From Bacillaceae bacterium IKA-2 (GTDB lineage: Bacteria; Bacillota; Bacilli; Bacillales; Anaerobacillaceae), in assembly GCA_031761875.1 (NCBI GenBank), contig CP134492.1, forward strand, positions 62,001 to 126,000: a stretch of DNA of 64,000 nucleotides, given 5' to 3'. Below the pieces are notes generated by a model that made no database searches, was not told the origin of the DNA, and saw nothing but the letters and a program-made list of their open reading frames with translations. The position numbers and the translations under genes were made by a program. Of this stretch, positions 11,066 through 14,897 are shown in pieces (the stretch's first letter is position 1; every line of letters starts with the position of its first letter).

Positions 11066-11114
11066 ACACAAATGAACCAGCCGACTACGTTAAGGGAGCT
11101 GGCTCATTTGTGTA
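11066..11114 (-). terminator. Hairpin overlapping the 3' end of cwlD
   Basis: The long inverted repeat ACAAATGAGCCAGC / GGCTGGTTCATTTGT starts inside the last codons of cwlD. The following T-tract on the minus strand is weak, so it may protect the 3' end as much as terminate. Confidence 0.55.
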
Positions 11115-11801
11115 GTATCGCAAAATACCTTGGTATATTGATGCTGCTATTTTCTGCTGGTAAGCTTCTGTATTTAACAGCTCAGCTTCTGTTGGATTAG
11201 ACAAAAATCCGACTTCTACTAAAGCACCTGGTATCTTTGCATGTTTTAGTAAATAGACATTTCCAATTGGTTTTGCAAATCTTGTAGTATTTTCTAAATT
11301 ATTTCTAATTTCCTCTTGAATAAATTTTGCAACTTTTTCATTTTCAGATATGGTTCGGTTGTAAAATGTTTGGGCACCAAACCAACGTGCTGATGGTATT
11401 GCATTAAGATGAAGGGAAACAAAAAGGTCGCCTCCCGCTTCATTAACAAGTTCGACTCGTCTTTTTAGATCGGCGACTTTTCGATTTCTTACTCCACTGA
11501 TTGAAGAGTCAGCTAAGTCACGATCTTCTTCTCTAGACATGATGACTAGGGCTCCTGATTCCTGTAAATAATCTCTAAGAATTAAACTGATATTTAAAGA
11601 TACATCCTTTTCTAAAAGGCCTAGTTTTGACACCGCACCGCCATCAATACCTCCATGCCCAGGGTCAACAATTATGATTTTACCTGATAGTGGAAGTGAC
11701 CACGAAGAACCAGAATTTGCAGTTAAAAACTGATATTGTATATAAAATAATAAACAAATAATAATCGCTACAAATGTCCCACCTTTCACAAACTTGCCCA
11801 T
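11085..11801 (-). CDS. cwlD: N-acetylmuramoyl-L-alanine amidase CwlD
   Basis: A 238-residue Amidase_3 enzyme. CwlD removes stem peptides to make muramic lactam in spore cortex, a step needed for germination. It has an N-terminal signal or anchor (9-26) and zinc ligands in DPGHGG (His49), EKD (Glu64) and SLHLN (His131), plus catalytic Glu196 in VEVGFLSN. The start is the ATG at 11799-11801, six bases after GGAGGG; an upstream ATG in the same frame precedes that ribosome binding site. It is downstream of ybaK in one minus-strand unit. Confidence 0.93.
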   Translation of the reverse strand: MGKFVKGGTFVAIIICLLFYIQYQFLTANSGSSWSLPLSGKIIIVDPGHGGIDGGAVSKLGLLEKDVSLNISLILRDYLQESGALVIMSREEDRDLADSSISGVRNRKVADLKRRVELVNEAGGDLFVSLHLNAIPSARWFGAQTFYNRTISENEKVAKFIQEEIRNNLENTTRFAKPIGNVYLLKHAKIPGALVEVGFLSNPTEAELLNTEAYQQKIAASIYQGILRYYTNEPAPLT

Positions 11802-11861
11802 TTCTTTCCCTCCTATCATCTCAATACATTATATTGGGACAAGGTGGGAAATATGAGTGAA

Positions 11862-12296
11862 TTAGTGTAATTTCAGCCGGTATCGTTTTTCACCTTCTTG
11901 AAATCCTTTTTCCCACCAGTAGAGAATAAAGGATTCACACAATTTTAATAAAAATTCATCTTCGTCATTTGTATAAAGCCAGCCTGAAAGTTGACGATAA
12001 AGATGACTAACGTGGTTCCCATACATATCTTTACACCGTCTACGCACTAATAGCTCAGACTCTCCATAATAACCAAAACGGCTAAATTCCGCTCCTAATA
12101 AATAGGCATCAATGGCAAAGTCAACACATATATCTTCTATAAAGCTTTCACCATTTTTTTGGTGCTCAAATACTGAAGGGAAATGGCTATGAACATTATC
12201 TCTAATCGTCGACAACGAAAGTTTTCGCAGTACTTTCCGCTCAAAGTTCCACTGTTTTTTGCGTCTGCGCTCTTCAAACGTCGTAATTACATTCAT
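11862..12296 (-). CDS. ybaK: YbaK-like protein (DUF2521 family)
   Basis: A 144-residue protein of unknown function, matching YbaK of B. subtilis in length, aromatic-rich sequence and position just upstream of cwlD. It has a basic N-terminus (FEERRRKKQWNFERKVLRK) and a Trp/Tyr-rich C-terminal half (ILYWWEKGFQEGEKRY). No membrane segment is evident. GGAGGGAGAAAA precedes the ATG. Co-transcription with cwlD suggests a sporulation link, which is inference. Confidence 0.8.
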   Translation of the reverse strand: MNVITTFEERRRKKQWNFERKVLRKLSLSTIRDNVHSHFPSVFEHQKNGESFIEDICVDFAIDAYLLGAEFSRFGYYGESELLVRRRCKDMYGNHVSHLYRQLSGWLYTNDEDEFLLKLCESFILYWWEKGFQEGEKRYRLKLH

Positions 12297-12417
12297 TTTT
12301 CTCCCTCCTTTTTACTGTTAGTGTCAATCAACAGTACATGCTTAATCCTATGGAAAAAGACTCTAAAAAGGGAAATATAGCTATGTATAGATTAAACTCA
12401 AGGCGTTTTTTAAAAAC

Positions 12418-12449
12418 ACAAAAAAACCTCGGCACACTACCGAGGTTTC
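12418..12449 (-). terminator. Terminator after the disulfide reductase gene
   Basis: The stem AACCTCGG / CCGAGGTT is followed on the minus strand by a run of seven T. It lies 15 bp after the stop codon at 12465. Confidence 0.88.
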
Positions 12450-12464
12450 ATTGAATAGAACTTT

Positions 12465-13826
12465 TTAAAAATCAATTGCCCTAATAGCTTCGACTACCGT
12501 TTCGGCTAATGTTGGATGTACTGGGATTATCTCGACAAAATCATCAACCGTTAATTTACCTTTAATAGCAACTGTTATCAAATGAATTAACTCATCAGCT
12601 TCTTCACCAATAAAATGTGCTCCAATAATTTGTCTTGACATACGATCTGCTACTATTTTAAAAAAGCCTTCTGTCTCCCCCATGAGAATCGCAGTCGCTG
12701 AATGAGTATAGGGAACTTTACCCACAACCACGTCAAAACCTGCCTCTTCTGCTTCAGCTTCCGTATAGCCAACGCTCCCAATAGGTGGCATCGTAAATAC
12801 TGCCTTTGAAATGTTTTTACTATTAAATAGATGTTTATTACCAGTTAAGGCATTTCTTACAGCAAATTTTGCTTCTTGCGCTGCCATTGTCGTAAGCATT
12901 ATACCACCAATTACATCCCCAGCAGCATATACCTTTTCATTTGTCGTTTGAAAATATTCATTTACGATAATTCCTGTTTCTTCTTGATAGTTAATACCAG
13001 CCACTTCCAAACCCATTTCTGCTAGTGCCGGCTTTCTACCAATTGCCATTAATACTTCATCAGTTACAATCGTTATTTCTGATTCCTCTTTTTGTACCAG
13101 TACACTTAGTTGTCCTTTTTTTGTTTTCACAATCTTTTTTACATCACTTTGAAAGAGAATTGTCACTCCATGCTTTTCTGTCATTTCCTCAATCGCGAGT
13201 GATATTTCGATGTCCTCATTTTTTAGTAAACGATCTCCTCTATGGATAATTGTTACTTGGCAACCAGCCACTGCAAGCATATGAGCAAATTCCATGGCAA
13301 TAATGCCACCGCCAACAACGACCATCTGCTTTGGCAACTCTTCTAAATATAAAAATTCTTTACTGGTTAATGCATACTCAATACCTTCTATATCAGGTAA
13401 AATCGATTCGGAACCTGTGCCCAATAGAAATTTTGCTGCAGAATATGTTTCATCGCCAACTTGGATGATTTCAGAAGAGATAAATCGTGCATCTCCAGAA
13501 ACTAAATCAACACCCATTTTCTTTAAATACGGACCTTTTCCTTTAACGAAACCATTAATTAATTTGTTTTTTCTGTCCATTACTTGATTCCAATTTAAAT
13601 CCGTTTCGGCAAAATTTAGTCCATAGCTAGATGCGTTCCGTTGTTGACTCCAAATCTTCATAGACCTTACCAAGGCCTTTTTTGGCAGTCAACCCCAATT
13701 AATACAAGTTCCGCCGACTCTCTCCTTTTCCACTAATAAAACTTTAGCACCATGAGAAGTCGCTTCTCTTAATCCATCAAAACCAACCGTCCCTGCACCA
13801 ATAATGATAATATCGTAATGTTTCAT
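12465..13826 (-). pseudogene. Flavoprotein disulfide reductase with in-frame TGA at the second redox Cys (candidate selenoprotein or nonsense pseudogene)
   Basis: One continuous 453-codon frame for a class I pyridine nucleotide-disulfide oxidoreductase (lipoamide dehydrogenase / mercuric reductase type). The ATG at 13824-13826 follows AGGGGG. The FAD motif GAGTVG is at 10-15. The active site reads GGTCINWG then TGA at codon 46 (13689-13691), then LPKKALV, where the family has CxxxxC followed by xPxK. Cys41 is present and the TGA takes the place of the charge-transfer Cys. Downstream parts look intact: NAD motif GGGIIAME from 172, AAGDV around 300-305, and the His437-Glu442 dyad of VHPTLAE. 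No frameshift is visible. It may be a Sec-containing enzyme or a recent loss-of-function allele. FDG just after the FAD motif is atypical and slightly favours decay. Confidence 0.8.
13672..13688 (-). promoter_or_regulatory. Hairpin just after the active-site TGA (SECIS-like)
   Basis: Directly after the TGA the RNA contains a 6-7 bp stem AGGCCUU / AAGGUCU with a GGU loop. The loop begins 17 nt after the UGA. Bacterial SECIS elements usually have a G in the first two loop bases and lie 16-37 nt from the UGA, so the geometry is compatible. The stem is short and the call is tentative. The structure extends downstream to about 13663. Confidence 0.35.
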
Positions 13827-13868
13827 AATAGTTCCCCCTATTTTTAGTCTTATCCTCCCAATTACTAT

Positions 13869-13990
13869 AGCATAAGAAAAGCACAAGCGCCTTGGTCAGC
13901 AAGGGCAAGCACTCGAAGTCTGCTAAGCAATTACAACCTTAGGCTGAAGTGACCTCGAGAAGCTAAACAGACGCGAAATTTTATGCTTTC
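13869..13990 (+). repeat. Dispersed repeat, family R1, copy 2
   Basis: About 120 bp starting ATAAGAAAAGCACAAGCGCC and containing CCTTGGTCAGC and AAGTGACCTCGAGAAGCTA, segments shared with 49703-49827. It separates the disulfide reductase gene from the rpsI terminator. Confidence 0.75.
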
Positions 13991-13999
13991 TTATCTCTC

Positions 14000-14030
14000 A
14001 AAAAAGACCCCCAACCATAATGGTTGAGAG
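14000..14030 (-). terminator. Terminator after rpsI
   Basis: The stem CTCAACCA / TGGTTGGG with a TTA loop is followed by TCTTTTTTG on the minus strand. It closes the long ribosomal protein and rplM-rpsI transcription unit. Confidence 0.88.
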
Positions 14031-14047
14031 CCTTGAAACGTAAATTT

Positions 14048-14440
14048 TTAACGTTTTGAGAACTGAGGTGCACGACGTGCTGATTTAAGACCTGGTTTTT
14101 TACGTTCTTTCATACGTGGATCACGTGTTAAGAATCCAGCACTCTTTAAAGTTGGGCGGAATTCTGGATCTGCTAATAAAAGCGCACGTGATACTCCGTG
14201 ACGAATAGCGCCTGCTTGTCCAGTGTATCCTCCACCGCTCACATTTACTAATACATCATATTTTCCAATAGTTTCTGTTTCTACTAGTGGTTGCTTACAA
14301 ATAAGCTTTAATGTCTCTAATCCGAAATACTCGTCAAAGTCGCGATTGTTGATTACGATACGTCCATCCCCAGGGATTAAACGTACACGTGCAACTGAGT
14401 TTTTACGACGACCAGTACCGTAATATTCTACTTGTGCCAA
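14048..14440 (-). CDS. rpsI: 30S ribosomal protein S9
   Basis: A 130-residue S9 of normal length, ending in the invariant basic tail APQFSKR that reaches toward the P-site tRNA. The early sequence [16 protein letters not shown] is diagnostic. The start codon is TTG at 14438-14440 with AAGGAGGG upstream. It follows rplM by 19 bp, the usual L13-S9 pair. Confidence 0.97.
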
Positions 14441-14459
14441 AGAAAACCCTCCTTATTTA

Positions 14460-14897
14460 TTAACCGCGAAGTTCATAAACTTCTGGTTGTTGTGCTTGGT
14501 GTTGGTGCTCACTACCAGCATATACATGTAATTTCATGCCTTGCTTACGACCTAAAGTGTTTTTAGGAAGCATTCCTTTAATCGCCAACTCAAGCATTTG
14601 AATTGGATGGTTTGTGCGCATTTCAAGCGCCGTTCTTTGCTTTAATCCACCTGGGTGGTTACTGTGTCGGTAATAGATCTTATCCGTTAACTTCTTACCT
14701 GTTAAATGGATTTTTTGAGCATTGATCAGAATTACGTTGTCACCAGTATCCACGTGTGGAGTAAATGTTGGTTTATTTTTACCACGAAGAATCGCGGCAA
14801 CTTCACTAGCTAAACGACCTAAAGTTTGACCTTCAGCATCGATAACATACCACTTACGATCAACTTCGTTAGGCTTTGCCATATATGTCGTACGCAT
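14460..14897 (-). CDS. rplM: 50S ribosomal protein L13
   Basis: A 145-residue L13 of normal length with [16 protein letters not shown] near the N-terminus. It is an early assembly protein of the large subunit. GGAGGG precedes the ATG by eight bases. It is the first gene after its own promoter (15014-15042) and a structured leader, and heads the rplM-rpsI pair. Confidence 0.97.

What the first reader, a model, noticed from the sequence alone, without database searches (positions are those of the whole stretch)
13663..13720. In-frame TGA exactly at the second redox cysteine of a flavoprotein disulfide reductase
Seen: the minus-strand frame 13826-12465 is continuous over 453 codons except for one TGA at codon 46. 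It reads GTCINWG-TGA-LPKKALV, where the family has CxxxxC followed by xPxK, so the TGA replaces the charge-transfer cysteine. All other family motifs downstream are intact. Seen: after the UGA there is a 6-7 bp hairpin with a GGU loop starting 17 nt away. Established: bacterial selenocysteine insertion uses UGA plus a nearby hairpin with a G early in the loop, and Sec often replaces a redox Cys. Inference: this may be an undescribed Cys-to-Sec disulfide reductase with a Cys-Sec pair. The alternative is a one-base Cys-to-stop mutation. Selenoprotein genes in Bacillaceae are rare but exist.
Basis: partly seen in the sequence, partly recalled or inferred. Interest (0 to 1): 0.88.

Follow-up and report, generated by a model that had tools for sequence, protein, structure and literature searches.

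The report
New selenium-containing bacterial flavoprotein reductase family
A "stop" codon sitting exactly at an active-site position of a bacterial redox enzyme is almost certainly read as the rare selenium amino acid selenocysteine, and the same codon with the same RNA signal is kept in related enzymes of several other bacteria, so this looks like a selenoprotein family that was not on the lists we could check.

Summary
Observation confirmed. The minus-strand frame 13826-12465 has 453 codons and one TGA, at codon 46 (13691-13689), where 72 of 72 Cys homologues compared have the second redox cysteine. A 7-bp hairpin follows, its GGU loop 17 nt from the UGA.

The genome has selA, selB, selD and tRNA-Sec, and other UGA-containing genes: selD and two formate-dehydrogenase-type genes. 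Orthologues are not Cys forms: 7 more full-length ones (47-60% identical, four further families) each carry exactly one TGA, at the same codon. All 8 genomes have SelB. The hairpin is identical in 7 of 8 genes although synonymous sites elsewhere are saturated; in the eighth it re-forms from other letters.

Best reading: a selenoprotein family, a CxxxxU flavoprotein disulfide reductase, probably NADPH-dependent, substrate unknown. It is not in a 119-entry inventory of 2026, and no model of its own shows among the NCBIfam matches listed. A ninth, frame-broken relative has the UGA at the other redox position. Selenium itself was not measured.

The parts
12465..13826 (-). CDS of the selenoprotein (453 codons, UGA = Sec46); NAD(P)H/FAD disulfide-reductase fold
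   Evidence: Pfam PF07992/PF02852
13689..13691 (-). TGA codon 46, read as selenocysteine; position of the second (charge-transfer) redox Cys
   Evidence: TGA in 8 of 8 family members; Cys in 72 of 72 Cys homologues
13704..13706 (-). codon 41, first (interchange) redox Cys, partner of Sec46
   Evidence: invariant in 8 of 8
13662..13678 (-). SECIS hairpin, 7 bp, GGU loop (13671-13669), inside the coding sequence
   Evidence: hairpins with a GGUCU loop at +19 in the two UGA-containing formate-dehydrogenase-type genes of the genome
12501..12518 (-). HPTLAE: His437 and Glu442, the group's acid-base pair
   Evidence: H437, P438, T439, E442 invariant in 8 of 8; role recalled from glutathione reductase / lipoamide dehydrogenase
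13239..13241 (-). Arg196 after strand beta-2 of the NAD(P) domain; suggests NADPH
   Evidence: meaning recalled
13833..13839 (-). ribosome-binding site AGGGGGA
   Evidence: by eye
12423..12449 (-). terminator-like hairpin after the gene
   Evidence: 1 found, 1.1 expected in shuffles; notable only for its place right after the stop codon

Best explanation
The gene encodes a selenoprotein. UGA46 is decoded as selenocysteine by SelB and tRNA-Sec under the direction of the hairpin whose loop lies 17 nt downstream (inferred from conservation; machinery and hairpin shown in sequence). The product is an FAD enzyme of the glutathione reductase / lipoamide dehydrogenase / mercuric reductase group (shown by profile; homodimer inferred) in which the usual Cys-Cys pair is Cys41-Sec46. 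Electrons pass from NAD(P)H, probably NADPH, to FAD, then to the Cys41-Sec46 selenenylsulfide; the selenolate at 46 sits beside the flavin, Cys41 attacks the substrate disulfide, and His437-Glu442 of the other subunit act as acid-base (inferred from the recalled mechanism of the group). The substrate is unknown: a small disulfide, or a protein-bound one such as lipoyl, is most likely.
For: Sec machinery: selB 337 bits, cut-off 242; tRNA-Sec 58.7 bits, cut-off 47 and ARAGORN tRNA-SeC; selA 559 bits, selD 366 bits. selD itself reads MTGKAG-UGA-GCKIG. Two formate-dehydrogenase-type genes have one in-frame TGA each (L065 at 797 bits, over the cut-off of 666; L068 at 205 bits, below it), each followed by a hairpin with loop GGUCU at +19. 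Family: 8 of 8 full-length members have exactly one internal TGA, in the same column; 8 of 8 carrier genomes have SelB over the cut-off, against 2 of 14 control genomes. Hairpin: 18 nt identical in 7 of 8; L115 has other letters, a 6-bp stem and a GGUU loop at the same distance; codon identity 0.80 against 0.35, 0 of 100,000; synonymous sites saturated (pS 0.80-0.83) with pN 0.12-0.31 downstream of the UGA in the six pairs tried; the 18 nt occur in 0 of 69 Cys homologues. One side of one branch, SH-aLRT 100, apart from 72 Cys rows. In L115 TGA is also the gene's own terminator, so the code is not simply reassigned. H437, E442 and R196 invariant.
Against: No selenium measurement. By folding energy alone the hairpin is modest: 4 of 8 genes are below P 0.05 against synonymous recodings; on a 36-nt cut 3 of 8 (the window among them) give -7.0 kcal/mol, weaker than the -7.5 of the published model, and on a 51-nt cut with the UGA L074 prefers another fold. 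A hairpin with G among the first two loop bases at 16 nt or more is found by the same folding in 21 of 69 Cys homologues, in 2 of them at -7 kcal/mol or below, so the model fit alone is weak evidence. No SECIS family of Rfam matched (one chance-level hit to another family). Base-pair change rests on one gene. No close orthologue was found in 6 of 7 genomes of the genus (three of them 62-90% complete) or 2 of 3 of G092's family although these have SelB, so the gene looks dispensable. Enzyme function is by homology; no structure could be computed.
Confidence: 0.93

Rival explanations
1. One-base Cys-to-stop mutation (pseudogene or polymorphism) or a sequencing error.
For: TGA is one base from TGT/TGC; no close orthologue was found in the 6 other genomes of the genus.
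Against: The same codon is TGA in 8 of 8 orthologues from separate assemblies and 5 families, with purifying selection downstream and no other stop in any.
Confidence: 0.01
2. Two polypeptides: UGA is a real stop and translation restarts at the next codon (ATG in 7 of 8).
For: TGA-ATG adjacency in 7 of 8 genes.
Against: In the window the next codon is CTG; the break would split the FAD domain inside the redox loop and leave out a residue that is Cys in 72 of 72 homologues; it explains neither the conserved hairpin nor SelB in 8 of 8 carriers.
Confidence: 0.02
3. UGA is read through by something other than SelB (tryptophan suppression or a reassigned code).
For: The frame is continuous across it.
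Against: TGA is the terminator of the same gene in L115; the window's genome has the full Sec machinery; the residue at this place is a redox Cys in homologues.
Confidence: 0.01
4. It is a selenoprotein, but functionally an ordinary dihydrolipoyl dehydrogenase (E3) for a 2-oxo acid dehydrogenase.
For: TIGR01350 is the best NCBIfam match of all 8 members, over its cut-off in 1 of 8. In G414 one divergent ORF separates the gene from a 2-oxo acid dehydrogenase set (E1-alpha over its cut-off; E1-beta and E2 best matches but below cut-offs) beside phenylacetate genes (PaaA), and I saw no E3-like ORF among those listed there (by reading).
Against: 7 of 8 fall below the E3 cut-off; the Glu that ends strand beta-2 in 46 of 50 His-type Cys homologues is H, L or Q followed by Arg in 8 of 8, which points to NADPH, not NAD; I saw no such set in the other loci read.
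Confidence: 0.25

Closest known systems
Lipoamide dehydrogenase / glutathione reductase / mercuric reductase group (Pfam PF07992 + PF02852)
   Same: Domains, GGTCxNxG-x-xPxK redox loop, His-Glu pair; family profile matches PDB 5x1y (mercuric reductase) at 3.1e-109, then 8k40, 3o0h, 1ebd
   Different: Sec in place of the second redox Cys; nearest Cys row 39.5% identical to any member; own side of the tree; signatures GxGxV..DG, U-[LM]-PKK, R196
FAD-dependent oxidoreductase (CoA-disulfide reductase) selenoprotein, TIGR03385, motif UGxP (PMC13188914 Table 1; PMC9312934 table)
   Same: A Sec-containing member of the wider FAD disulfide-reductase superfamily
   Different: Motif UGxP against CxxxxUxPK here; TIGR03385 scores 108 bits against a cut-off of 579. 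That this class has a single redox Cys is recalled.
NAD(P)/FAD-dependent oxidoreductase / type III sulfide quinone reductase selenoprotein, NF049943 (PMC13188914; PMC12013277)
   Same: FAD oxidoreductase with Sec
   Different: HxxU motif, other family; NF049943 is not among the 25 best NCBIfam matches shown
Thioredoxin / glutathione reductase with Sec (TIGR01438)
   Same: Sec-containing enzyme of the same fold
   Different: There Sec is in a C-terminal GCUG tail (recalled); here it is in the N-terminal redox loop and no such tail is seen; TIGR01438 scores 201 bits, cut-off 476

Membership tests
Bacterial selenoproteins | In-frame UGA at a redox Cys position, conserved as UGA in homologues | tested here: met
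   8 of 8 members TGA; Cys in 72 of 72 other homologues
Bacterial selenoproteins | Host has selA, selB, selC, selD | tested here: met
   Window genome: all four. In the other 7 genomes only SelB was tested: 7 of 7
Bacterial selenoproteins | Selenium present in the protein | not testable with these tools
   needs 75Se or mass spectrometry
Bacterial SECIS model (PMC13188914 Fig 2 legend) | 3-9 nt loop, 4-16 bp stem, G in the first two loop bases, 16-37 nt spacing | tested here: met
   Window: 3-nt GGU loop, 7 bp, 17 nt; 8 of 8 genes fold this way on a 36-nt cut. Control: a looser form of the same test is met by 21 of 69 Cys homologues
Bacterial SECIS model (PMC13188914 Fig 2 legend) | Energy <= -7.5 kcal/mol | tested here: inconclusive
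   -7.0 to -13.8 on 36 nt; -8.5 to -15.7 with the UGA and 48 nt
Flavoprotein disulfide reductases (PF07992/PF02852) | Both domains over the Pfam cut-off | tested here: met
   161 and 115 bits, cut-offs 26 and 25
Flavoprotein disulfide reductases (PF07992/PF02852) | Redox-active Cys-Cys pair CxxxxC | tested here: not met
   CxxxxU; works like the pair only if Sec is inserted
Dihydrolipoyl dehydrogenase TIGR01350 | Score over the curated cut-off 408.8 | tested here: not met
   393.5 for the window; 1 of 8 members over (L115, 422)
Mercuric reductase TIGR02053 | Score over the curated cut-off 454.45 | tested here: not met
   369 for the window; 396 the best of the members listed; has HPT..E, absent from the MerA row L078
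CoA-disulfide reductase TIGR03385 (the listed selenoprotein) | Score over the curated cut-off 578.8 | tested here: not met
   107.6 bits

The most novel reading that the evidence does not exclude
Sec can occupy either place of the redox pair in this family: charge-transfer (CxxxxU, 8 genes) and, in G265 (L075), interchange (GGT-UGA-LNRG-TGT-IPKKALVRS, i.e. UxxxxC), served by the same conserved hairpin at two distances (17 and 32 nt). The family would then be a natural swap of selenium between the two redox positions of one enzyme.
Probability: 0.3. Interest if true: 0.85.

Novelty: new variant of a known kind. Interest (0 to 1): 0.75.

Why it matters
The charge-transfer thiol beside the flavin is among the best-studied residues in redox enzymology (recalled). 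A natural enzyme with a selenolate there would allow a direct test of what selenium adds at that step: rate, redox potential, resistance to over-oxidation. It adds a family to the selenoproteome of Bacilli, and such genes would be annotated as broken or N-terminally truncated reductases by programs that read UGA as stop. The 18-nt hairpin inside a coding sequence is also a compact candidate SECIS element to study.

Tried and rejected
Pseudogene or point mutation: rejected (7 orthologues with the same TGA). Whole-code change: rejected (TGA terminates the same gene in L115). Restart of translation at the next codon: judged unlikely. MerA and classical lipoamide dehydrogenase as names: below cut-offs, except 1 of 8 members for the latter.

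Viral contigs: 3 stretches matched a pattern, none a relative. Plasmids: the 5000 best records (limit reached) all under 60% identity; the 20 listed 34.4-35.6%. Genome contigs, with the piece after the TGA as query: 9 loci, 29-33% identity. Phylum sample with the family profile, 398 genomes: 14 genomes with a match at 1e-120, only the window's own at family level (764 bits); the rest 404-433 bits, no internal stop. Rfam: one chance-level hit, no SECIS family. Structure prediction: 'busy' on all 12 tries, so no fold comparison was made. Conserved operon: none seen; a metA ORF (L117: homoserine O-acetyltransferase model over its cut-off) lies downstream in 3 of the 4 f73 loci (not in 51; L118 and L120 named by reading).

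Papers. Passages: PMC13188914, PMC9312934, PMC12013277, PMC5029168, PMC7996765. Named section: PMC13188914 section 7 parts 1 and 2 of 3, which hold all of Table 1. PMC12013261 and PMC9879109 (two Haft papers) are not held; I know their families only through the review's table. Listings only: 20 of 51 shown; 20 of 330; 20 of 43; 2 of 2; 2 of 2; 20 of 224; 8 of 8; 10 of 11; two searches found 0.

Full report
1. The observation. On the minus strand the frame from ATG 13826 to TAA 12465 is open for 453 codons except for one TGA at codon 46, 13691-13689. AGGGGGA stands 6 nt before the ATG and a terminator-like hairpin follows the stop (1 found, 1.1 expected in shuffles). The part after the TGA matches PF07992 and PF02852 well above cut-off. 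The residues around the TGA, GGTCINWG-U-LPKKALVRSM, are the redox loop of flavoprotein disulfide reductases. In 72 distinct Cys homologues both redox columns are Cys in 72 of 72. These come from 79 loci that the searches had handed out (not every match they found); all 79 gave an ORF and 7 duplicates were dropped. A 7-bp hairpin AGGCCUU-GGU-AAGGUCU follows, with 17 nt between UGA and loop.

2. Does this genome insert selenocysteine? By gene content, yes. The genome (one contig, 4,424,890 bases) has selB (337 bits, cut-off 242), tRNA-Sec (58.7 bits, cut-off 47; ARAGORN, anticodon tca), selA (559 bits) and selD (366 bits). selD carries its own in-frame TGA, MTGKAG-U-GCKIG. Two formate-dehydrogenase-type genes have one TGA each: L065 (797 bits, over the model's cut-off of 666) and L068 (205 bits in its best stretch, below it); a further one over the cut-off, L066, has none. 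The hairpins after those two TGAs have a GGUCU loop that starts at +19; in the reductase GGU starts at +18. All 7 genomes of the genus have selB over the cut-off.

3. Orthologues. In 61 genomes (the window's own and 60 relatives) the piece after the TGA found nothing above 36% in the matches listed, apart from itself. In 397 genomes of the order, 170 had a match at 1e-75; of those listed only two lie above 38% identity: L074 in G092 (47%, full length, one TGA) and the partial G265 match (44%) treated below. L074's TGA is at the same place. In 398 genomes of the class, 7 had a match at 1e-88, the window's own and L111-L116 (47-60% identical); each has exactly one TGA and no other internal stop. 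Aligned, the TGA is one column in 8 of 8. The genomes fall in five families (f1, f4, f65, f73, f77). In f73, 4 of 4 held genomes carry it; in f4, 1 of 3. SelB is over the cut-off in 8 of 8 carriers, against 2 of 14 control genomes. Three non-carriers outside the genus were tested: G009 and G055 have SelB, G017 has not; G265, which has only the broken copy, has it too. SelB prevalence in the class sample was not measured. In 398 genomes of the phylum the family profile found only the window's own gene at family level (764 bits; next 433), so the family is sparse.

4. The hairpin is under selection as RNA. The 18 nt AAGGCCTTGGTAAGGTCT are identical in 7 of 8 genes. L115 has AAGGCTCTGGTTAGAGCC, which folds into a 6-bp stem with a GGUU loop at the same distance. 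Among residues invariant in all 8 proteins, codons agree in 0.80 of pairs at the five hairpin positions and 0.35 at the other 111; none of 100,000 random draws of five reached 0.80. In six pairs of genes tried, pS downstream of the UGA is 0.80-0.83 (saturated) and pN 0.12-0.31, so the part after the UGA is translated and constrained. The 18 nt occur in 0 of 69 Cys homologues whose DNA could be placed (3 of 72 could not). Against this: the same call finds some hairpin with G in the first two loop bases, 16 nt or more away, in 21 of those 69, 2 of them at -7 kcal/mol or below, so fitting the published model (PMC13188914, passage) is not special by itself. By energy alone only 4 of 8 genes stand out at P < 0.05 from synonymous recodings, the model's -7.5 kcal/mol is missed by 3 of 8 on a 36-nt cut (-7.0), L074 folds otherwise on a 51-nt cut while the other 7 keep the hairpin, and no SECIS family of Rfam matches.

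5. What the protein is. A tree of 8 Sec and 72 Cys rows puts the Sec rows on one side of one branch, SH-aLRT 100 (quick method, root only for drawing, Sec as X). No Cys member of that side was found. TIGR01350 (lipoamide dehydrogenase) is the best NCBIfam match of all 8, but over its cut-off in 1 of 8 (L115); six Cys homologues score 487-585 bits on it (the seventh scanned is a MerA). No selenoprotein model was among the matches shown (25 for the window, those at 1e-110 or better for the others). PDB profile search: best 5x1y, mercuric reductase, 3.1e-109; then 8k40, glutathione reductase 3o0h, dihydrolipoamide dehydrogenase 1ebd. H437, P438, T439 and E442 are invariant. The Glu that ends strand beta-2 in 46 of 50 His-type Cys homologues is H, L or Q in the Sec family and is followed by Arg in 8 of 8, as in most of the non-His (MerA-like) rows; this points to NADPH (inference; the meaning of these residues is recalled). 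The family also has D17-G18 in the FAD loop and U-[LM]-P-K-K.

6. How it most likely works. SelB with Sec-tRNA binds the hairpin and inserts Sec at UGA46 (inferred). NADPH reduces FAD; FAD reduces the Cys41-Sec46 selenenylsulfide; the Sec46 selenolate stays beside the flavin and Cys41 attacks the substrate disulfide, with His437-Glu442 of the partner subunit as acid-base (inferred from glutathione reductase and lipoamide dehydrogenase, recalled). The substrate is open. In G414 one divergent ORF separates the gene from a pyruvate-dehydrogenase-type E1-alpha (469 bits, cut-off 411) with E1-beta and E2 (best matches, below cut-offs), near PaaA; I saw no E3-like ORF among those listed there. The other loci show no such set to my reading. 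So a lipoyl substrate is possible but not favoured.

7. The odd ninth copy. G265 (L075) has GGT-TGA-LNRG-TGT-IPKKALVRS: UGA at the first redox position and TGT at the second, with the identical 18-nt hairpin, its loop now 32 nt from the UGA, and another hairpin whose loop is 12 nt from the UGA. The reading frame then shifts. The piece after the shift groups with the Sec rows (96). The genome has SelB. Either this is a decayed copy, or selenium has moved to the other redox position and the frame break is an assembly error; the data do not decide.

8. Novelty. Table 1 of the 2026 review PMC13188914 (119 families and subfamilies) lists no CxxxxU protein of the lipoamide dehydrogenase / glutathione reductase / MerA type; the nearest are a CoA-disulfide reductase type with UGxP and a sulfide quinone reductase type with HxxU. 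Full-text searches (selenoprotein or selenocysteine with dihydrolipoyl or lipoamide dehydrogenase and a UGA term) found 0 papers; the listings, several of them partial, showed no title of that kind. Two Haft papers could not be read. So 'not in print' holds only for this library and this table. I rate it a new variant of a known kind: a known enzyme superfamily and a known recoding mechanism, combined at a site not listed before.

Mended: the second formate dehydrogenase is below its model's cut-off, the 21 of 69 control was added, the plasmid identities were corrected, and several neighbour genes were named by a search.

Noticed in passing
L075:1370-1520 and L104 (genome G265): Relative with UGA at the first redox position and TGT at the second (UxxxxC), identical 18-nt hairpin, then a frame change. 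Nearby: a mercuric reductase (TIGR02053 645 bits) and an ArsR/SmtB-type regulator; CcdA- and TlpA-like ORFs by reading.
   Followed up: partly
L026:4120-5171 (G000): selD of the window's genome has an in-frame TGA in the MTGKAG-U-GCKIG loop, so SelD is itself a probable selenoprotein.
   Followed up: yes
L065 and L068 (G000): Two formate-dehydrogenase-type genes with an in-frame TGA and a GGUCU-loop hairpin at +19 (L068 is below the model's cut-off); a further copy over the cut-off, L066, has no internal stop.
   Followed up: partly
L122 and L144 (genome G414): UGA-reductase gene near PaaA and a 2-oxo acid dehydrogenase set (E1-alpha over cut-off, E1-beta and E2 below), with no E3-like ORF seen among those listed.
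   Followed up: partly
L117, L118, L120 (family f73): metA-type ORF downstream (L117: homoserine O-acetyltransferase model; the other two by reading) and an SseB-like ORF upstream (by reading; the L118 one had no NCBIfam match) of the UGA-reductase in 3 of 4 genomes.
   Followed up: partly
window 11085-14897: The gene sits between ribosomal protein genes S9 and L13 and cwlD; no close orthologue was found in the 6 other genomes of the genus, which suggests a gain here or losses there.
   Followed up: no
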